Origin: Rheinheimera sp. UJ63 | GTDB lineage: Bacteria; Pseudomonadota; Gammaproteobacteria; Enterobacterales; Alteromonadaceae | Reading direction: 5' to 3' | Assembly: GCF_021568285.1 (NCBI RefSeq) | Contig: NZ_JAKGTQ010000004.1 | Location: 186,001-250,000, forward strand | Length of the DNA: 64,000 bases | The notes under the pieces: model-generated | The model's input: the letters and a program-made list of their open reading frames with translations, nothing else | What the model was told of the DNA's origin: nothing | The model's database searches: none | Shown here: one piece after another, positions 32,733-40,611 of the stretch | Layout: each line of letters starts with the position of its first letter | How positions within the stretch are numbered: the stretch's first letter is position 1 | Made by a program: the position numbers and the translations under genes

Positions 32733-33083
32733 ATGTCAAAAAAAGTTTATTGTGTGGCACAGTTTCTGCCAAAAGCGGGTAAAGAAGCGGCTTTATTTAA
32801 GGTATTACAAAGCCTTGAGCCAAACACGCTGCGTGAGGATGGTTGCTTGCAATACATTGTGACACGTCAAGTAGCCAGCCCCTTTGCCGAAGGTAAAAGC
32901 TTCCCTATTGCCTTTAATGAAATTTGGGCGGATATGGCCAGTTTTGAAGCGCATTGTCAGCGTGCCGAAATCAAACATTTCTTTGAAACCTACTGTGTTG
33001 CGGCTGATGGGTTAGCCGCAGATTGGAATGTCTGTATTTATACCGATGAACCTGCTGAGTATGACGCACCCCAACTTGGCTGA
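32733..33083 (+). CDS. Putative antibiotic-biosynthesis monooxygenase (ABM) family protein
   Basis: A 116-aa single ABM/dimeric ferredoxin-like domain protein. The pattern KVYCVAQFLPKAGKEAALFKVLQSLEP, a central beta strand and FNEIWADMASFEAHCQRAEIKHF (the W-x-s-x-e-a-f-x-x-H helix) fit quinol-monooxygenase-like proteins of the YgiN type. The substrate is unknown. It starts 15 bp after the nhaD terminator and overlaps the next gene. Confidence 0.8.
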   Translation: MSKKVYCVAQFLPKAGKEAALFKVLQSLEPNTLREDGCLQYIVTRQVASPFAEGKSFPIAFNEIWADMASFEAHCQRAEIKHFFETYCVAADGLAADWNVCIYTDEPAEYDAPQLG

Positions 33084-33471
33084 AGCCGCGCTTGCTGAGT
33101 CAGTTTCAAGCTTAGCACTGTTTTATGATGAGGGCTGTCCGGCGTGTCGGTTTTACAGTCGACGTGTGCAGTTACAAGCCTCTTTGGGGCAATTGCAGCT
33201 CATCGATGTAAGGGCTGAACCCCACTATGCACGGTTGTTAGCTGGCGCAGGGTATCAGATTGAGCAGGGGATGGTGCTGCGCGTTGCTGACAGTTGGTAT
33301 GGCGGTGCGGATGCCTTGCAGATGCTAGCGTTACTCAGTAGCCGTAGTAATGTTTTTAATCGATTTAACTTTTGGTTGTTTAAATCGCCGCGTCGCGCCA
33401 AAGTGTGGTACCCCGTGCTACGCAGGGCCCGTAACAGCTTGCTTTGGCTGTTACGGTTGCCAAAAATTTAG
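33061..33471 (+). CDS. DCC-type thiol-disulfide oxidoreductase-like protein (DUF393)
   Basis: About 136 aa. The N-terminus carries the family signature LFYDEGCPACRFYSRRV with a thioredoxin-like CxxC, followed by IDVRAEP and a later region (VLRVADSWYGGADAL) typical of DUF393. C-terminal residues are basic and hydrophobic. The ATG at 33061, inside the preceding gene, is chosen; an in-frame ATG at 33028 is possible but lies deeper in that gene. The redox partner is unknown. It is convergent with the MTHFR-like gene, overlapping by 4 bp. Confidence 0.8.
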   Translation: MTHPNLAEAALAESVSSLALFYDEGCPACRFYSRRVQLQASLGQLQLIDVRAEPHYARLLAGAGYQIEQGMVLRVADSWYGGADALQMLALLSSRSNVFNRFNFWLFKSPRRAKVWYPVLRRARNSLLWLLRLPKI

Positions 33472-34424
33472 GCCACTTGCTTCTCTGCTAAATGTAACTC
33501 CATCATCGCTTTCAACAACCGGAATAAACGAATAGCGGCGTCAATTTCTTCGCGCCGGTTTGTTAAACTTTCAACATTCAAACCCAAGGGTAAGTCTAAG
33601 GCGGCACAATGTTGCAAAATTTGCTGCAAGTTATCTCGGCAAATTTTAATCGATTCATTCAACGGATTGGCCGCATCTAAAATACGATACTTACTGCCCT
33701 CAGGCACAGAAATACCCAGCCACTGCATAAATGTTAAAGTTTGCTCACCGCCACAGGGGGTAAAGGTCAAAATAATGCGTTTGGGGCTGATACCTTGTTG
33801 CTTACAGCTTCTGGCATAGCTGGTAAGTAAATCAATAGTGGCTTGCGCGTTATACACCGCTTGCGAAATAAAGAACTGACAACCTTGTGCCGATTTCTCA
33901 ATTAGTCGCAAATGTTCGTTGCCTTTTTTAGCATGGCGCTCTGCAATGGCCACACCGCCTAAATGAAACTGAGCATCGTGTGCGGCTAACTGCTGATAAG
34001 CTTCTGGCAAGCTGAGTTTGATATCACCATTAGAGGAGGGGCTACCCACTAACACAAGATTACGTAAAGCATATTGCTGCTCTGTTTCGGTTAGCCAGGT
34101 ATTAAATTCCGCAGCATCACGCTGGGCTACACTCTTATAAGTGATCACATCTTGTTGTGCGAGTTCACGTAACAATACGCTGTAATCACGGGGATCTAAG
34201 GTACTGTGAAAAGGAAAAGGCCGCTCTGCAGCTACGCGGCTGCTTTCATCTTGAATATCATAAACAATTAACCCGTCGTACTCGATTTCGTTTAAACGGG
34301 CCAACAGCTTTTTAGCGATACGTGTGGTTTTTTCGATATCCGTGCCGGCTTTTGGCGGTGTGGTGCCAATCAAATAGACACCCTGTGCCGGATCAGTGAT
34401 TTTTTGCTGTAAGGATAATGCCAT
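33468..34424 (-). CDS. Methylenetetrahydrofolate reductase-like protein
   Basis: A 318-aa protein with an MTHFR-type flavin barrel but divergent from canonical MetF. The core segment HLGGVAIAERHAKKGNEHLRLIEKSAQGCQFFISQAVYNAQATIDLL matches the folate/FAD region consensus; N-terminal DGLIVYDIQDE resembles the substrate strand. The ATG at 34424 is chosen because it leaves the promoter and a MetJ-like operator upstream; a start 13 codons earlier would place those inside the gene. The operator points to a methionine or one-carbon role, but the exact reaction is uncertain. Confidence 0.75.
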   Translation of the reverse strand: MALSLQQKITDPAQGVYLIGTTPPKAGTDIEKTTRIAKKLLARLNEIEYDGLIVYDIQDESSRVAAERPFPFHSTLDPRDYSVLLRELAQQDVITYKSVAQRDAAEFNTWLTETEQQYALRNLVLVGSPSSNGDIKLSLPEAYQQLAAHDAQFHLGGVAIAERHAKKGNEHLRLIEKSAQGCQFFISQAVYNAQATIDLLTSYARSCKQQGISPKRIILTFTPCGGEQTLTFMQWLGISVPEGSKYRILDAANPLNESIKICRDNLQQILQHCAALDLPLGLNVESLTNRREEIDAAIRLFRLLKAMMELHLAEKQVA

Positions 34425-34454
34425 GATACTTATACCCCAAATTGCGATTCCGGT

Positions 34455-34485
34455 AGTATACACCTATCTGGACGTCTGGCCATCT
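34455..34485 (-). promoter_or_regulatory. MetJ-box-like operator and -10 box
   Basis: On the minus strand three consecutive 8-mers read AGATGGCC, AGACGTCC and AGATAGGT (34485-34462). The central one matches the MetJ consensus AGACGTCT at 7 of 8 positions; the flanking ones match at 4-5. Immediately downstream is TATACT (34460-34455), a good -10 element about 31 bp before the MTHFR-like start, so bound repressor would cover the -35 region. MetJ itself is not in the window. Confidence 0.55.
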
Positions 34486-34532
34486 AAATTTTTGGTTTTT
34501 TAATCTGTTAATCCCATCACACTGCGAAGGTT

Positions 34533-35034
34533 TGTATTTACGTTTTGTATCTGACAGCGAAGCTTGCAGCTTGCAAAACGTTAAACGTTGCGTAAAGCTT
34601 CGGCTGGAGCACGCTGTAAATACCTCCTTGTACGCTCCTCTTTTTCATCCCTGAAAAAGACGTCTTAAGCCAACGTTTACTTCGCTATTAACTCGTCCAG
34701 CATCAATCCGAAGTGTTTGTGCTTTTAATCCCATTACGTTGCAAGCCGGGCAACCTGGCGCGGCCAAGGTTTTAAGACGAGGGGTGTTTGAGCGAGGCAC
34801 GGTAGTGCCGAACGAGTTACCTCGTCGCCTTGGTCGGGTTAGGTTGAGCCGGGCTTTCGCCGCAACGTAGGGTCGCATTTTCTTTGGATACTTTCTTTTG
34901 GCGACGCAAAAGAAAGTATCTCGCCGCAAGGTGAAATACTGACTAGCCTATGGCTTAGTTATTGAAATTGTTAAATTAAAAGTTAGAAACTGAGTGTTAA
35001 GCTGATTTGCTCGGTATCTGACCCCGAAGCTATG
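34533..35034. repeat. Tandem repeat unit A, about 500 bp, non-coding
   Basis: First copy of a directly repeated unit, running from GTATTTACGTTTTG to ACCCCGAAGCTATGT. It is roughly 97% identical to unit B by eye, with about a dozen substitutions and a 2-bp length difference. It contains nested inverted repeats: GTATTTAC/GTAAATAC, CGTTTTG/CAAAACG, CTTTTTCA/TGAAAAAG, the palindrome AAGACGTCTT and a 14-bp stem GATACTTTCTTTTG/CAAAAGAAAGTATC (34885-34920 region). A minus-strand frame of 94 codons exists but is not conserved in unit B. Confidence 0.85.
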
Positions 35035-35535
35035 TATTTACGTTTTGTATCTGACAGCGAAGCTTGAAGCTTGCAAAACGTTAAACGCTGCGTAAAGCTT
35101 CGGCTGGAGCACGCTGTAAATACCTCCTTGTACGCTCCTCTTTTTCATCCCTGAAAAAGACGTCTTAAGCCAAAGTTTACTTCGCTGTTAACTCGTCAAG
35201 CATCAATCCGAAGTGTTTGTGCTTTTAATCCCATTACGTTGCAAGCCGGGCAACCTGGCGCGGCCAAGGTTTTAAGACGAGGGGTGTTTGAGCGAGGCAC
35301 GGTAGTGCCGAACGAGTTACCTCGTCGCCTTGGTCGGGTTAGGTTGAGTCGGGCTTTCGCCGCAACGTAGGGTCGCATTTTCTTTGGATACTTTCTTTTG
35401 GCGACGCAAAAGAAAGTATCTCGCCGCAAGGTGAAATACTGACTAGCAGTTAAGGCTTAGTTATTGAAATTGTTAAATTAACAGTCAGAAACTGAGTATT
35501 CAGCTGATTTGCTCGGAATCTGACCCCGAAGCTAT
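35033..35535. repeat. Tandem repeat unit B, about 500 bp, overlapping the bufC 3' end
   Basis: Second copy of the unit, joined head to tail to unit A. The reading frame seen in unit A is cut to 77 codons by one base change (GGA to TGA on the minus strand), which argues against a real protein. The last 36 bp or so of this unit supply the C-terminal codons and stop of the neighbouring DUF2063 gene. No transposase, terminal inverted repeat or target duplication is evident. Confidence 0.85.
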
Positions 35536-36282
35536 GTCTGGAGCACGCACAATAGCCCCTGCGGTAGCCCATTGCTGCAATAACGGCAAAGCCGCTGCCG
35601 TTAATTGCGCTGGGCTAAGTTGCGGCAGCATTGGAGCAAGCTGCTGAATATGCTCGGATAGGGGCTGACCGGGTTGTTGTTGGATATTATTTAATAGCAA
35701 TAAGGTAGCCTGATTTAAACTGACAAAAATCACCTCATCAGCCAAATCGCGATAGATCAAAAAACACTGTAGCTCACCTGGCGTGCTCGGTTGAAAGTCT
35801 TTACTAATTTGCTGTACCGGAAATTGGTAGGCGCTCAGTAGTGCCAGTTCTGACAAGGCCAATGCTGCCGTGCTGACGTCATCTGCAGCAAGTGGTTCAA
35901 CCGCTTGGGTGGCTTTGACGGTGCCGACATAGAGTTCTGCCCATTCATAATGCGCCAGTTCAGCCAGAAAAGGCGGATCCTCGGCGGTCAATGTGTATTG
36001 TTGTAAAAAACTGACAAATTGCTCGGCGATATGCAAAAAATAAGGTGAATGACAGGCATAGTCACGAAAAAATGCGGTTTGTAACGCCAGCCAGGCTTTA
36101 GCTGGGTACAGGCTGTGTAATACCGGGAAGGCATTATCAATAAAGCCGCGCACATTATTAAAAAACAATTCTTGGTAAACCTGCAAGCGCTCAGGCGCTA
36201 AGGTTGCTACGGCACTAGGAGGTTTATCAGGATTGCGGATAGCCTTGGCAAAATCTCGTTGCATTTGAGCTAACTGGCTCAT
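35500..36282 (-). CDS. bufC: DUF2063 partner of MNIO enzyme (BufC/HvfC family)
   Basis: A 260-aa protein with the N-terminal DUF2063 helical domain: MSQLAQMQRDFAKAIRNP, then LQVYQELFFNNVRGFIDNAFPVLHSL and FFRDYACHSPYFLHIAEQF. A C-terminal domain rich in Leu/Gln follows. In bufferin systems this protein assists the DUF692 enzyme in binding and modifying the precursor, in the cytosol. The ATG overlaps the bufB stop (ATGA), so it is translationally coupled; the frame is open upstream but no earlier start is needed. Odd feature: its last dozen residues (DIASGSDSEQIS) and stop are encoded by repeat unit B. Confidence 0.88.
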   Translation of the reverse strand: MSQLAQMQRDFAKAIRNPDKPPSAVATLAPERLQVYQELFFNNVRGFIDNAFPVLHSLYPAKAWLALQTAFFRDYACHSPYFLHIAEQFVSFLQQYTLTAEDPPFLAELAHYEWAELYVGTVKATQAVEPLAADDVSTAALALSELALLSAYQFPVQQISKDFQPSTPGELQCFLIYRDLADEVIFVSLNQATLLLLNNIQQQPGQPLSEHIQQLAPMLPQLSPAQLTAAALPLLQQWATAGAIVRAPDIASGSDSEQIS

Positions 36283-37124
36283 GAGGCTTGCCGCTCTAAT
36301 TGACGTTGTGCGTGTTGCAACTGCTTGATATAACGAAGCTCCTGACAAAGCTGCGGCATGGCCGGTACGTTAAAATCACGTTCATATAAAGTGGGTTTTA
36401 CACCATGGTGTTGATAAGCCGCTTGCAGCAGTTGCCATACTGGATCGGGCACATCGGCGCCATGGGTATCAATTAATAGGTTTGCTGTTTGCTGGTAGTG
36501 CCCGGCAACATGATAGTAGGCAATGCGCTCGGTTGGCATCGCTTGTAAAAAGGTGTTGGCGTCATAACCATGATTAACCGCATTAACGTAGATGTTATTC
36601 ACATCCAGTAACAGCTGACAGTCGGCTTCTTCTAATACCGCCTGTAAAAACTGTTGCTCGCTTAATTGCTGATCGGGTGCAACATAGTAGGAGACGTTCT
36701 CTAAGATCAGCGGGCGCTCTAAAATATCTTGCACCTGCTGGATGCGGCCAGAGACATAATGGATGGCTTCTTCAGTAAAAGGGATTGGCATTAAATCGTA
36801 CAGATGGCCATTGGCAGAGCAATAACTCAAGTGCTCGCTATACTGCAAAATCTGATGTTCATCCAAAAACTGTTTTACCTGTTTAACAAAGGCCACATCT
36901 AAGGGATCGGGGCTGGCAATCGATAGCGATAAGCCATGACAAAAAAACGGATACTGTTCGGTTAAGCGCCGAAAATCGCGCTGCAGTTTGCCACCGTAAG
37001 GTAACCAGTTTTCTGGCGCCACTTCAAAGAAATCAATGTCTGCCGGTTTTTGCTGAAGCAATTCCGGCAGCATTTCACGGCGCAGGCCAAGGCCCGCGCT
37101 GTGCTTGTCGAGTGACAAGGGCAT
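36279..37124 (-). CDS. bufB: DUF692 MNIO enzyme (BufB/HvfB family)
   Basis: Multinuclear non-heme iron oxidative enzyme with a TIM-barrel fold, about 281 aa. Metal-ligand-type motifs are visible: FFEVAPENW, FCHGLSLSIASPDPLD, YSEHLSYC, PLILENVSYY, LLLDVNNIYVNAVNHGYD, YYHVAGH and LIDTHGADVPDPVW, all typical of DUF692. Characterised members oxidise cysteines of bufferin-like precursors to thiooxazole or related groups. The adjacent precursor with EGKCG motifs makes that the likely role. The ATG at 37124, 8 bp after the precursor stop, is preferred; an in-frame GTG at 37160 would overlap the precursor. No strong ribosome-binding site, so coupling to the precursor is likely. Confidence 0.92.
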   Translation of the reverse strand: MPLSLDKHSAGLGLRREMLPELLQQKPADIDFFEVAPENWLPYGGKLQRDFRRLTEQYPFFCHGLSLSIASPDPLDVAFVKQVKQFLDEHQILQYSEHLSYCSANGHLYDLMPIPFTEEAIHYVSGRIQQVQDILERPLILENVSYYVAPDQQLSEQQFLQAVLEEADCQLLLDVNNIYVNAVNHGYDANTFLQAMPTERIAYYHVAGHYQQTANLLIDTHGADVPDPVWQLLQAAYQHHGVKPTLYERDFNVPAMPQLCQELRYIKQLQHAQRQLERQAS

Positions 37125-37131
37125 GAGTGAC

Positions 37132-37686
37132 TTAGATAGAGCCACACTTACCTTCGCCACATTTCATTTCTTTGGCTTTATCACTGGCTTTTTTCTTGGC
37201 ATCCATGGCTTTGTCAGCACCCGCCGCTTTCGCTGAGTCGGCTTTATCATGGGCGTGTGCTTTCATCTCTGCGCCACACTTGCCTTCACCACACTTCATT
37301 TCTTTGGCTTTGTCGGCCGCGGCTTTTTTCATGTCGGCACCACATTTGCCTTCACCACATTTCATTTCTTTGGCTTTATCGGCAGCGGCTTTTTTCATGT
37401 CTTCGCCACATTTACCTTCGCCACACTTCATTTCTTTGGCTTTATCGGCAGCGGCTTTTTTCATGTCTTCGCCACACTTGCCTTCTCCGCACTTCATTTC
37501 TTGCGCTTTATCTTTCACTTTAACCTTTACGCCTGTGCCGGTTTCGGTGTGATTGTGCAGTTGATAGGCCATGGTCAGTTGTTGTGCTTGAAACGGGTTA
37601 TTGTTCGTTTCGGCATTTACAGTAGCTGAACCCAGTGCTAAAGCACCTAGGGCTAGGGTAAGTTGTGTTTTGGTTAAGCTGTTCAT
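37132..37686 (-). CDS. bufA: Bufferin-like RiPP precursor with five CGEGKC motifs
   Basis: Secreted 184-aa precursor. A Sec signal peptide (about 1-25, ending VNA) is followed by a short linker and a Lys/Ala/Glu-rich helical-looking region. It contains exactly ten cysteines, all in five copies of MKCGEGKCG: Cys66/71, 88/93, 110/115, 132/137 and 176/181. The first four motifs are spaced 22 residues apart; the fifth is 44 residues on, so one unit lacks its cysteines. EGKCG is the motif modified in bufferin/HvfA-type peptides, and the DUF692 and DUF2063 genes follow directly. Expected to be modified in the cytosol and exported to bind metal, probably copper; metal choice is inference. No second, DUF2282-type precursor is seen. 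Confidence 0.92.
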   Translation of the reverse strand: MNSLTKTQLTLALGALALGSATVNAETNNNPFQAQQLTMAYQLHNHTETGTGVKVKVKDKAQEMKCGEGKCGEDMKKAAADKAKEMKCGEGKCGEDMKKAAADKAKEMKCGEGKCGADMKKAAADKAKEMKCGEGKCGAEMKAHAHDKADSAKAAGADKAMDAKKKASDKAKEMKCGEGKCGSI

Positions 37687-37835: not shown

Positions 37836-38558
37836 TTAATAGGTGGTAATTAAATTTAACCAGGTGTCAGGCAGGTTATCCGTAGCCCAAATCAGTATCA
37901 TTTGATCGGCTCCCGTTAAGATCAGTAGACCCACCAACAATAAACTGTAGCCAAGAACTTGCCGTGCTTTTTCTCCACCAGCGGCGATTTTGGGTAAAAA
38001 ACGTCGAGCGGAACCGGCAAACAGATAAGCGATAGCAATGAGCGGCAGTGCGGCGCCAATACCAAACACCAGCATTTGCACGCCCGCGTTGACTAAACTA
38101 CCGGAGTTACCGGCGAGGCCCAATGCCGCACCGAGAATAGGGCCTGCGCATGGACTCCAAATGGCGCCCAGCATTAAACCTAACCAAAAGGCACCACCGG
38201 GTTTTTGTTCCAAGGTTGTAGCCAGTTGGTCCGCTTTAGCGGCCAAGGGCGCAAAAAAGCCGCTGCTGCCTTGCTTGAACCAAGGCAACACTAAGGCTAA
38301 ACCAAATAATACCAATAAACTGGCAAACAATGGCCGGGTAACACTATCACTTAGCCCAAGCACACTGCCAAGACCATGCAGCAGCATGCCCATCAAAGCA
38401 AAACCAATGGCCAAACCCATACCCGTAAATACGGGAGCCAATTTATGTTTTGCTAAGCCAGAACTGGCCATTACGGGCAGCACCGGCAAAATGCACGGTG
38501 ATAACGTAATTAACATACCCGCCAGTAATAGCAGTGGTAACAGGCTAAAATCAATCAT
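37836..38558 (-). CDS. CcdA/DsbD-type thiol transporter-like membrane protein
   Basis: A 240-aa protein with six hydrophobic segments. It carries the paired cysteines that define the CcdA/DsbD-beta family: SPCILP (Cys22) in the first membrane segment and SPCAGP (Cys137) in the fourth. Such proteins move reducing equivalents from cytosolic thioredoxin to periplasmic thioredoxin-like partners. The partner here is probably the exported CPVC protein encoded 15 bp upstream. There are no DsbD alpha or gamma domains, so it is not full-length DsbD. Position immediately before the cysteine-rich precursor suggests redox service for that peptide or for metal handling. Confidence 0.88.
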   Translation of the reverse strand: MIDFSLLPLLLLAGMLITLSPCILPVLPVMASSGLAKHKLAPVFTGMGLAIGFALMGMLLHGLGSVLGLSDSVTRPLFASLLVLFGLALVLPWFKQGSSGFFAPLAAKADQLATTLEQKPGGAFWLGLMLGAIWSPCAGPILGAALGLAGNSGSLVNAGVQMLVFGIGAALPLIAIAYLFAGSARRFLPKIAAGGEKARQVLGYSLLLVGLLILTGADQMILIWATDNLPDTWLNLITTY

Positions 38559-38573
38559 TAACCGACTCCCGTG

Positions 38574-38978
38574 TTATAGCGCTTTTAGCATTTCAGCTTT
38601 AATCGCTTGCTCGTCAGTTAAGCCTCGGGTTAAGGACACTAATTCGCCTTTATTCACGACAATAATGGTGCTTTGACCGGTAACGCCATAGCGATTGTTT
38701 AATGCTTTCTCTGTTACTTGGTTATATTGCAGCACTTTAAGATCGCTAAACGCGGGGTCCTTTAACAGTGCCTCAATCACCGGCACTTGTTTCGCACACA
38801 CTGGGCAACCGGGTTTAGTGGCAACTAGTACAAAGCTACCTTGTTGCTCTGCCTCGACTAATTGTGCTGCAGAGTAAGCGGGTAAGACAAAGTTAGTGGC
38901 ATTCGCTTGCGGGGCAGTGAATAGTGCTACGGCGAAAGTTGATGCTAGGGCGAACGTTTTTAAAGAAGTACTTAACAT
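38574..38978 (-). CDS. Exported thioredoxin-like protein (CPVC)
   Basis: A 134-aa protein with a Sec signal peptide cleaved after about residue 27 (PQANA). It contains a thioredoxin-type active site KPGCPVCAKQ (Cys58, Cys61) and a later TGQSTIIVV strand with the usual thioredoxin fold layout, although the cis-Pro is replaced around TGQST. The ATG at 38978 is preferred (AGGA 8 bp upstream, proper signal peptide) over one 11 codons earlier. It is the first gene of the leftward thiol/bufferin group and lies about 60 bp downstream of an ECF-like promoter. Confidence 0.85.
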   Translation of the reverse strand: MLSTSLKTFALASTFAVALFTAPQANATNFVLPAYSAAQLVEAEQQGSFVLVATKPGCPVCAKQVPVIEALLKDPAFSDLKVLQYNQVTEKALNNRYGVTGQSTIIVVNKGELVSLTRGLTDEQAIKAEMLKAL

Positions 38979-39037
38979 AATAAAAATCCTATTGTGAGAG
39001 AAATAAACCACAAAGTGCGGTGTGTTCAGGGGTAATT

Positions 39038-39062
39038 GGCGAGAAAACTAGAAAAGGTTACA
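39038..39062 (-). promoter_or_regulatory. ECF-type promoter for the leftward trx-ccdA-bufABC group
   Basis: Minus strand: TGTAAC (39062-39057), 15-bp spacer, CGCC (39041-39038), about 60 bp before the thioredoxin-like start. It mirrors the element upstream of the sigma-factor gene on the other strand with the same spacer. The -35 AAC core and CG-type -10 are typical of ECF promoters. Confidence 0.55.
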
Positions 39063-39082: not shown

Positions 39083-39107
39083 TGTAACTTTTTGTCGTGT
39101 TATCGTC
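39083..39107 (+). promoter_or_regulatory. ECF-type promoter for the sigma/anti-sigma genes
   Basis: Plus strand: TGTAAC (39083-39088), 15-bp spacer, CGTC (39104-39107), 48 bp before the sigma-factor start. ECF factors commonly drive their own gene, and the matching divergent element suggests both operons belong to the same regulon. Confidence 0.55.
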
Positions 39108-39154
39108 AATAACAAAGCAATTGGCCGTCGACAGCCATAGAAACAGGATTAAAC

Positions 39155-39673
39155 ATGAACGACTGGCAGGTTCTGCTAGAACGAGCCCAGCAGGGAGATA
39201 AGCAAGCTTACAGTGCTTTTTTAAGCGCCATTTTACCGTTTTTGCGCATGCGAGCTCGGCGCTATGTGCCCGCGCAACATTTAGACGACTTTGTGCAAGA
39301 GACGTTATTAACGGTACATCGCATTTTGCATACGTATCAAGTTGGCTTACCCGTTGAACCCTGGCTTAGTGGCATTTTGCGGCATAAATATTTTGAAAGT
39401 CGTCGTCAACTAGCGGCGAATGAACATCAATCGTTAAGTGATGAAGACAGCTGGCAGCCCAGCGTGCCTTTGGATGAAGATGAGCAATATCAAGCTGTTA
39501 GTCATTTACTGGCACCGCTAAATGCGGCACAAGCACAGGTGTTGTATGCCACCAAGGTAGAAGAATTGTCGATAGATGAAACCGCCAACCTGATGCAGCG
39601 CAGTTCGTCTTGGGTTAAGGTTAATGTGTTTCGAGCTATTCAGCTGTTACGCAGCGAATTAAATGAAAAATAA
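39155..39673 (+). CDS. ECF-family RNA polymerase sigma factor (SigF-like)
   Basis: A 172-aa sigma factor with only regions 2 and 4. Region 2 covers about 5-80 (LRMRARRYVPAQHLDDFVQETLLTVHRI, with the region 2.3/2.4 helix PVEPWLSGILRHKYFESRRQ). Region 4 covers about 110-165 (LNAAQAQVLYATKVEELSIDETANLMQRSSSWVKVNVFRAI). Start supported by AGGA 6 bp upstream. The next gene encodes a DUF1109-type membrane anti-sigma factor, an arrangement described for Caulobacter SigF-NrsF, which responds to heavy metals and controls bufferin genes. Control of the neighbouring locus is inferred from that parallel and the shared promoter motif. Confidence 0.92.
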   Translation: MNDWQVLLERAQQGDKQAYSAFLSAILPFLRMRARRYVPAQHLDDFVQETLLTVHRILHTYQVGLPVEPWLSGILRHKYFESRRQLAANEHQSLSDEDSWQPSVPLDEDEQYQAVSHLLAPLNAAQAQVLYATKVEELSIDETANLMQRSSSWVKVNVFRAIQLLRSELNEK

Positions 39674-39691: not shown

Positions 39692-40321
39692 ATGGCGGAT
39701 AAAACAGAGCAACTTATCGCGAAACTGGTCGACTCACATCAGGCGGTGCGGCCATTTCTAGCACCGCAAATTACCTATTTAACCTTGGGCATGGTGTTGA
39801 TGTGCGCATTGTTATTGATGCTGCCTTTTGGTTTACGTTTTGATTGGCCGCTGGCTGGGATGCTGAAAACCGCTGCCTTATTCATGCTAGTGGTGACGTT
39901 GCTGCAACTGACTTTATTGCTTAGTCAGCCGTTGCTGCCACAATGGCGCAAAGCCCCGCTCTTATGGTTGTCACTTGCTAGTAGCGTTGGGTTATTGATC
40001 TGTTTAGGTAATATGGGTGAGCCGCTGAGTTTCGGGCAAGCCGCCCAAGTTTCTTCATTTTGGGCCTGTATTGCTTGGATAGCGCCAGTGGGTATGGCGG
40101 CAGGCTGGATATTATCAAGAATGTTACGCCGAGCGCGGCCTTTGCACCGCATGGCTTTGCGCTTGGTGGTAGGAGGCCTAGCCGGTAGCTTAGCCGCCTT
40201 AGTGTATAGTTTGCATTGCCGCGTTGATGCCCTTGCATACTTACTGTTAGCTTATGGTTTAGCGGCAACCCTCGCCTTGCTGGGGAGCTTACTTAGCAGC
40301 CACCGGCTGTGGCGCTGGTAG
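39692..40321 (+). CDS. DUF1109 (NrsF-type) membrane anti-sigma factor
   Basis: A 209-aa inner-membrane protein with about six hydrophobic segments and a short cytosolic N-terminus (MADKTEQLIAKLVDSHQAVRP) of the kind that binds the sigma factor. Family cysteines are recognisable: Cys126 in SSFWACIAWIAP and Cys176 in YSLHCRVDALAYLL; Cys38 and Cys104 also lie in or near membrane segments. In Caulobacter NrsF paired cysteines are needed for metal response. It follows the sigma gene after 18 bp. Confidence 0.88.
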   Translation: MADKTEQLIAKLVDSHQAVRPFLAPQITYLTLGMVLMCALLLMLPFGLRFDWPLAGMLKTAALFMLVVTLLQLTLLLSQPLLPQWRKAPLLWLSLASSVGLLICLGNMGEPLSFGQAAQVSSFWACIAWIAPVGMAAGWILSRMLRRARPLHRMALRLVVGGLAGSLAALVYSLHCRVDALAYLLLAYGLAATLALLGSLLSSHRLWRW

Positions 40322-40335
40322 CCCCTACTGCATTA

Positions 40336-40611
40336 TTAATGCACCCGATAATAACGGCAGAAGTAATCAATCACACTATTCGCATCTAAATGTGAAAAGG
40401 TCAGATGATGTTTTGCCATAACGGCTTGCCCCAAGGTTTGTAAAATCGTCTCTAAACCGGCCCCACTTGGGCGTTCTAATTGATGTTGCTGAAATAAAAA
40501 GTCTAAGGCCGCTGAGGTATAAGATTTACCTGGCAAAGGCTGGGTTAATTCCAGCTCATGAAGCCGTGCTCCTAAGTTGCGTATTTTTTGTAAACAGTTG
40601 CGTTCGTCCAT
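40336..40611 (-). CDS. Hypothetical protein, 91 aa
   Basis: Not recognised. A mostly helical 91-aa cytosolic-looking protein (LQKIRNLGARLHELELTQPLP, then GKSYTSAALDFLFQQHQLER and a C-terminal VIDYFCRYYRVH). It is probably real because GGAGG lies 6 bp upstream of the ATG and codon use matches neighbours. It is divergent from the Lon-like protease gene and converges on the anti-sigma gene with a 14-bp gap. No function is proposed. Confidence 0.7.
   Translation of the reverse strand: MDERNCLQKIRNLGARLHELELTQPLPGKSYTSAALDFLFQQHQLERPSGAGLETILQTLGQAVMAKHHLTFSHLDANSVIDYFCRYYRVH

What the first reader, a model, noticed from the sequence alone, without database searches (positions are those of the whole stretch)
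35500..37686. Bufferin-type RiPP locus with a five-motif precursor
A Sec-exported precursor with ten cysteines arranged in five CGEGKC motifs is followed directly by a DUF692 MNIO enzyme and a DUF2063 partner, in the order bufA-bufB-bufC. EGKCG cysteines are the residues converted to thiooxazole-like groups in bufferin/HvfA systems. Family knowledge predicts copper binding in the periplasm. The multi-motif Lys/Ala-rich precursor is distinct from the short DUF2282 type and would give up to ten modifiable cysteines per chain.
Basis: partly seen in the sequence, partly recalled or inferred. Interest (0 to 1): 0.85.

Follow-up and report, generated by a model that had tools for sequence, protein, structure and literature searches.

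The report
Copper-binding peptide genes with redox cassette
These genes look like a known type of exported, cysteine-rich, probably copper-binding peptide with the enzymes that modify it; the less usual part is a neighbouring thiol-recycling gene pair and a stress regulator that may work with it.

Summary
On the minus strand lie a 184-aa Sec-type precursor with ten Cys in five identical EMKCGEGKCG units (37132-37686), an MNIO/DUF692 enzyme (36279-37124) and a DUF2063 partner (35500-36282). This is a captophorin (Buf_EGKCG/oxazolin) locus, a family of about 2,000 described proteins. Ten cysteines is ordinary (39 precursors compared: 6-16).

Sigma-F-like sites face both ways between them in all three carriers found; three close relatives lack all four genes there but keep the peptide genes. 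In this genus 7 of 10 copies of the membrane protein lie beside an MNIO cluster. I infer that the pair keeps the modified thiols reduced for copper binding. Against this, three genomes carry pair and sigma factor but no MNIO, and a methionine sulfoxide reductase is a rival client. No chemistry or copper binding was tested.

The parts
37132..37686 (-). precursor (HvfA-family repeat type), 184 aa, 10 Cys
   Evidence: (NF050137 91.2 bits, cut-off 19.5)
37612..37686 (-). Sec-type signal peptide, about residues 1-25
   Evidence: by eye only; no signal-peptide program was run
37564..37599 (-). leader motif NPFQAQQLTMAY, probable recognition region (inference)
   Evidence: the form NPF-x(4-6)-L-x2-[AG]-Y is in 34 of 39 precursors
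37471..37500 (-). motif unit 1 EMKCGEGKCG
37405..37434 (-). motif unit 2 EMKCGEGKCG
37339..37368 (-). motif unit 3 EMKCGEGKCG
37273..37302 (-). motif unit 4 EMKCGEGKCG
37141..37170 (-). motif unit 5 EMKCGEGKCG
36279..37124 (-). HvfB-type MNIO (DUF692)
35500..36282 (-). HvfC-type DUF2063 partner; its last codons run into a repeat
37836..38558 (-). DsbD_TM/CcdA-like membrane protein with two Cys (C22, C137)
   Evidence: (CcdA 5vkv, 4.2e-9)
38574..38978 (-). thioredoxin-like protein, CPVC, exported by eye (ORF opens at 39011)
39036..39061 (-). sigma-F-like site GTAACC-N16-CCAA facing the thioredoxin gene
39084..39109 (+). sigma-F-like site GTAACT-N16-TCAA facing the sigma factor gene
39155..39673 (+). 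ECF sigma factor
39692..40321 (+). NrsF-type (PF06532) anti-sigma

Best explanation
This is a captophorin (Buf_EGKCG, HvfABC-type) locus combined with a stress-regulated thiol-redox cassette. HvfC binds the leader of the precursor; the multi-iron HvfB oxidises the ten KCG cysteines, with loss of 4 H each, to 5-thiooxazoles in the cytoplasm; the peptide is exported by Sec and binds Cu(I) in the periplasm. Envelope metal or thiol stress inactivates NrsF and frees the sigma factor, which transcribes its own operon and the divergent thioredoxin-ccdA(-hvfABC) genes. The CcdA-like protein passes cytoplasmic electrons to the CPVC thioredoxin, which reduces disulfides of the modified peptide and so keeps it able to bind copper. 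Shown here: gene content, family membership, metal-site residues, divergent promoter-like sites, joint presence or absence of the cassette. Inferred from characterised relatives: the chemistry, export and copper binding. Inferred only: the redox client and read-through from ccdA into hvfABC.
For: Families. Metal site: H63, H98, E142, D174, N177, H205, D219, H221, E248 invariant in 14 MNIOs, including the residues aligned to those found essential in HvfB (passages of PMC13419390). Cassette: sigma, NrsF, thioredoxin and DsbD_TM genes all present in G000, G005, G023 and all absent at that place in G003, G011, G017, which keep LonB-ORF91-hvfABC; the MNIO+HvfC tree does not group the three carriers together. 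Sites: GTAAC[C/T]-N16-NCAA on each strand of the sigma/thioredoxin gap in 3 of 3 carriers, six sites. Pair beside MNIO clusters: 7 of 10 small DsbD_TM copies in the genus, one of them beside a DUF2282 cluster.
Against: G500, G626 and G728 have the pair beside a sigma gene, and each has an NrsF gene, yet none of these genomes is among the 222 of 369 with an MNIO: the cassette works without the peptide. Only 3 of the 14 genomes with hvfABC beside LonB have the cassette. Outside the genus the pair is rare beside MNIOs: 1 of 34 named loci (L032, the same genome as G023; several loci are short) and 2 of 12 class copies, own included. The genome has a signal-bearing MsrA-MsrB fusion elsewhere, another plausible client. 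No sigma-F-like site lies directly before the precursor gene in G000, G005 or G023, and the 149-bp gap could hold a separate promoter. The motif is short: 2 matches in the window, 0.5 expected; one relative without cassette (G024) has the same form upstream. NF050188 (HvfA equivalog) is not met. No DoxX gene in the locus.
Confidence: 0.45

Rival explanations
1. The three genes are an ordinary captophorin operon with its own promoter; the thioredoxin-CcdA pair serves periplasmic methionine sulfoxide reductase or general envelope thiol repair and is only co-regulated and adjacent.
For: A signal-bearing MsrA-MsrB fusion is encoded elsewhere in the genome; in H. influenzae the msrAB operon encodes a thioredoxin and CcdA, and one ECF sigma controls msrAB and the DUF-DUF2063-DoxX operon (passages of PMC9404787 and PMC7907618); hvfABC is kept where the cassette is absent; G500, G626 and G728 have pair and sigma gene but no MNIO.
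Against: No msr gene is among the ten neighbours scanned; 7 of 10 copies in the genus sit beside an MNIO cluster in differing arrangements.
Confidence: 0.4
2. Strict bufferin (Buf1 or Buf2) locus.
For: Same gene order and enzyme superfamily; sigma/NrsF genes are reported in Buf1 clusters (PMC12452194).
Against: BufB 280.8 of 310, HvfB 440.2 of 360; no DUF2282 in the precursor or the genome.
Confidence: 0.05
3. The peptide serves another metal or scavenges oxidants rather than buffering copper.
For: The sigma-F/NrsF system responds to chromium and cadmium in Caulobacter, and the H. influenzae operon is induced by hypochlorite (passages).
Against: Characterised EGKCG products bind copper (PMC13097082; abstract of PMC12538549).
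Confidence: 0.1

Closest known systems
Fontiphorin (fonABC, Fontimonas thermophila), captophorins
   Same: Minimal precursor-MNIO-DUF2063 set, repeated Lys-Cys-Gly motifs; 4 H lost per Cys, copper bound (PMC13097082, parts 1-3 of 6 read)
   Different: Seven sites there, ten Cys here; the first motif of each unit is EMKCG; sigma/NrsF and thioredoxin-CcdA genes here
Oxazolin (hvfABC with DoxX-like HvfX, Haemophilus influenzae)
   Same: HvfB and HvfC models met; precursor matches the HvfA-family repeat model; ECF sigma control of the operon known there (passages)
   Different: Precursor fails the HvfA equivalog cut-off; no DoxX in the locus; NrsF-type anti-sigma; redox pair beside hvfABC instead of in the msrAB operon
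Bulbicupramide (mmrABC, Microbulbifer)
   Same: EGKCG cassettes with two Cys each, all modified by MmrB/MmrC (PMC12538549: abstract and part 1 of 2 of section 9)
   Different: Five to eight Cys there; no sigma or redox genes in what I read
Buf1 bufferin with SigF-NrsF (Caulobacter)
   Same: ECF sigma/NrsF pair, motif GTAACC-N16-CGAA, DUF692 and DUF2063 genes in the regulon (PMC3511200, passages)
   Different: DUF2282 precursor there, EGKCG/EMKCG precursor here

Membership tests
Captophorin / Buf_EGKCG-oxazolin | Exported precursor with repeated KCG (EGKCG) motifs | tested here: met
   NF050137 91.2 bits, cut-off 19.5; five EGKCG and five EMKCG; signal peptide by eye only
Captophorin / Buf_EGKCG-oxazolin | HvfB-type MNIO | tested here: met
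   NF003818 440.2 bits, cut-off 360; metal-site columns invariant
Captophorin / Buf_EGKCG-oxazolin | DUF2063 (PME1/HvfC) partner | tested here: met
   NF050145 266.4 bits, cut-off 142
[quoted passage not shown] a description, not the model used to collect the family) | tested here: not met
   Cys spacing 5/17, a 22-residue repeat; several relatives share this spacing
Captophorin / Buf_EGKCG-oxazolin | Cys converted to 5-thiooxazole; copper bound | not testable with these tools
   needs expression and mass spectrometry
HvfA sensu stricto | NF050188 equivalog cut-off | tested here: not met
   56.5 bits, cut-off 95
Bufferin Buf1 | DUF2282 precursor | tested here: not met
Bufferin Buf1/Buf2 | BufB maturase model NF050167 | tested here: not met
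   280.8 bits, cut-off 310; a DUF2282-linked MNIO also misses it (295.6), so the cut-off alone is not decisive
Bufferin Buf2 | Buf_6/12Cys precursor profile | not tested
   that profile is not in the libraries used
Methanobactin | MbnB model TIGR04159 | tested here: not met
   57 bits, cut-off 325
SigF-NrsF system | NrsF-family protein next to an ECF sigma factor | tested here: met
   PF06532 39.4 bits, cut-off 26.8
SigF-NrsF system | promoter GTAACC-N16-CGAA | tested here: inconclusive
   GTAACC-N16-CCAA at 39036-39061, one base off; use by the sigma factor untested

The most novel reading that the evidence does not exclude
In some bacteria thiooxazole metallophores work as a rechargeable copper sponge: a dedicated, co-regulated CcdA-thioredoxin relay drives electrons across the inner membrane to reset oxidised (disulfide) thiooxazole thiols, so that the peptide is recycled and not spent.
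Probability: 0.27. Interest if true: 0.7.

Novelty: new variant of a known kind. Interest (0 to 1): 0.4.

Why it matters
The core is one more example of a large group of MNIO products. What it adds is a natural comparison: close relatives with and without a four-gene sigma/NrsF/thioredoxin/CcdA unit beside the same peptide genes. In the parts of papers I read, how these thiol-rich peptides stay reduced in the periplasm is not settled; a dedicated electron relay would be a testable answer.

Tried and rejected
Ten Cys as exceptional: rejected (39 precursors, 6-16 Cys; these are 39 of the 40 matching genomes, G051 was not fetched). Fold of the precursor: AlphaFold on 9 sequences gave mean pLDDT 47.7, pTM 0.17, so the beta-helix reported for 17-residue repeats is neither supported nor excluded; no fold search was run. 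A sigma-F regulon in the genome: GTAACCTTT-N13-SSAA gave two matches; the second (L128) lies inside a reading frame (RNase HII-like by eye) and is probably chance.

Motif control: with the relaxed pattern (GTAAC[C/T], 15-17 spacer, NSAA; forward strand only) 5 of 36 precursor upstream regions in relatives match (G002, G006, G007, G022, G024; G005 and G023 are among the 36, their upstream lying in DsbD_TM). G006 has GTAACC with N16 (ending GGAA); G024 fits the exact form of the six cassette sites. The cassette gaps were scanned on both strands.

NrsF beside MNIO elsewhere: 6 of the 14 class loci over the cut-off that I fetched (four Buf1-like, two EGKCG; some share a genus); the six class matches below the cut-off were not fetched. 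0 of 6 order loci (four over the cut-off). Small DsbD_TM copies: seven further genus matches in frames of about 700 aa (full-length DsbD-like) were left out of the 10. A precursor hit to DHODB_Fe-S_bind is taken as a compositional artefact. DoxX: one in the genome, about 90 kb away.

Full report
WHAT IS THERE. Three minus-strand genes, A-B-C, fill 35500-37686. The precursor has a Sec-type N-terminus (by eye), a leader motif NPFQAQQLTMAY and five identical EMKCGEGKCG units (residues 63-72, 85-94, 107-116, 129-138, 173-182), the first four in 22-residue steps. The DNA of the units differs only at synonymous third positions. The MNIO passes the HvfB model and fails BufB; the DUF2063 protein passes HvfC; the precursor passes the HvfA-family repeat model but not the HvfA equivalog model. 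Closest PDB sequences are 3BWW for the MNIO (5.4e-70) and 3DEE for the partner (6.2e-12).

METAL SITE. In 14 MNIOs the columns H63, H98, E142, D174, N177, H205, D219, H221 and E248 of the window protein are invariant. PMC13419390 (passages) reports HvfB variants N175A, D242A and H244A as inactive; through the 3BWW alignment these fall on N176 or N177, D219 and H221. The numbering offset between HvfB and 3BWW was not resolved, but both Asn are present. That the other listed columns bind iron is recalled family knowledge, not a result here.

HOW COMMON. NF050137 matches 30 of 31 genomes of the genus and 40 of 60 genomes searched, own included in both. PMC12452194 (sections 13-15 and 21 read; passages) reports about 2,000 such proteins, 31-506 residues, up to 58 Cys. 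In 39 precursors compared here Cys number 6-16; 14 have EMKCG motifs, and these are the 14 genomes in which the locus lies beside the LonB gene. PMC13097082 found FonBC tolerant of most changes at motif positions 1 and 2, so EMKCG should be a substrate; this is inference.

THE NEIGHBOURS. Upstream in the same direction are a DsbD_TM/CcdA-like protein with exactly two Cys and an exported-looking thioredoxin-like protein with CPVC; then, divergently, an ECF sigma factor and an NrsF protein. Of the 14 genomes with the LonB-side locus, 3 have the four genes (G000, G005, G023) and the others have none of them between ORF91 and the precursor; the closest non-carriers are G003, G011 and G017. NrsF matches only the three carriers among 60 genomes. 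On an MNIO+HvfC tree of 37 loci G005 groups with G003 and G017 (support 1.000), apart from G000 and G023; the order of G000, G023 and G011 is weak (0.471), and the LonB tree of 14 puts G011 with G023 (0.947). If these trees hold, the unit was lost or gained more than once as a whole. G023 is Alishewanella longhuensis by identity with L032, which places the window's genus; its species is not known.

REGULATION. Caulobacter sigma-F sites read GTAACC-N16-CGAA (PMC3511200, passages). In the sigma/thioredoxin gap of all three carriers there is one GTAAC[C/T]-N16-NCAA site on each strand. In G508 and G631, two genomes of one other genus with sigma/NrsF divergent from an EGKCG precursor, DoxX, HvfB-type MNIO and DUF2063, the site is exactly GTAACC-N16-CGAA facing the precursor. 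The gaps of G003, G011 and G017 have no GTAACC. Against over-reading: 0.5 chance matches are expected per window and 11 of 100 shuffles reach the two found; relaxed matches occur in 5 of 36 other upstream regions, one of the exact form (G024). The three carriers' NrsF share two Cys; that they are Caulobacter C131 and C181 is inference, as no Caulobacter sequence was aligned, and G508 and G631 keep only one. ECF control of this operon type is itself known: meningococcal sigma-E operon NMB2140-2145 and H. influenzae RpoE2 (passages of PMC2893595 and PMC7907618). PMC12452194 reports sigma/NrsF genes in Buf1 and not Buf2 clusters; its passage on Buf_EGKCG clusters does not mention them. Figures and supplements were not seen.

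THE REDOX PAIR. Ten small DsbD_TM proteins were found in the genus. Seven lie beside an MNIO cluster: upstream of hvfABC (G000, G005, G023), just downstream of hvfC in the same direction (G004, G022), downstream and convergent (G006), and divergent from a DUF2282-MNIO-DUF2063 cluster (G023, L111). Three do not (G005 second copy, G011 near a contig end, G029). These are not independent events. In the class sample of 369 genomes there are 12 copies, own included: 11 have a thioredoxin gene next to or overlapping them, 4 a sigma gene (G000, G500, G626, G728), 2 an MNIO (G000, G559); some contigs are short. G500, G626, G728 and G553 are not among the 222 of 369 genomes with an MNIO, so the pair, and in three of them the pair with sigma and NrsF genes, also exists without any MNIO. 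Among 34 named MNIO loci only L032 has the pair; L036 has a weak thioredoxin hit without DsbD_TM. PMC12452194's main text has no 'thioredoxin' or 'DsbD'. One literature search with DUF692, thioredoxin and CcdA among its terms (43 papers with three of five terms, 12 listed) showed no title or abstract start on this pairing; I read parts of eight papers in all, and PMC8224329, which holds both DUF692 and thioredoxin, was not opened.

MECHANISM. HvfB/HvfC oxidation, export and Cu(I) binding follow from characterised relatives. Thiooxazole thiols react with iodoacetamide (PMC13097082), and the modified MmrA peptide has a TCEP-reducible bond (PMC12538549), so a CcdA-thioredoxin relay would have an obvious client. 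That step is inference. The chief rival is the MsrA-MsrB fusion that this genome encodes elsewhere, since H. influenzae couples a thioredoxin and CcdA to MsrAB (passages of PMC9404787).

VERDICT. Core: a new member of a known kind, about 0.93 likely. Locus architecture: a variant not described in what I read. Sigma-F-type control of the thioredoxin-ccdA genes about 0.7; redox service to the peptide about 0.4; the whole statement 0.45.

Noticed in passing
window 34516-35537: A roughly 500-bp direct duplication (300-nt part 96% identical, 87-nt part 93%) with hairpin-forming stretches just downstream of hvfC; the last codons of hvfC read into it.
   Followed up: partly
window 40336-40611: A 91-aa ORF beside the Lon-like protease gene is kept in 14 genomes but matches no Pfam or NCBIfam model at E 0.1.
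   Followed up: no
window 33028-34463: A DCC1-like protein and an MTHFR-like protein below the Pfam cut-off lie downstream of hvfC; the MTHFR-like gene is syntenic in six genomes.
   Followed up: no
L130:8791-9057: In G559 an 88-aa exported-looking peptide with repeated NPCA motifs lies between a thioredoxin-CcdA pair and a DUF2282-MNIO-DUF2063 cluster; no Pfam match. Possibly another precursor.
   Followed up: no
L096, L097 (G031, G033): KCGEGKCGEGKA-repeat peptides with 13 and 15 Cys, without the NPF-L-Y leader form and without an MNIO in the 14-kb stretch; G031 has MNIO genes elsewhere. Possible orphan precursors.
   Followed up: no
L140:1399-2670: Signal-bearing (by eye) MsrA-MsrB fusion with a CPYC motif between the two domains, elsewhere in the window's genome.
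   Followed up: partly
L067 (G006): Beyond the thioredoxin-CcdA pair lies a TolC/CusC-like outer membrane factor gene (named by eye), which hints at a metal-efflux setting.
   Followed up: no
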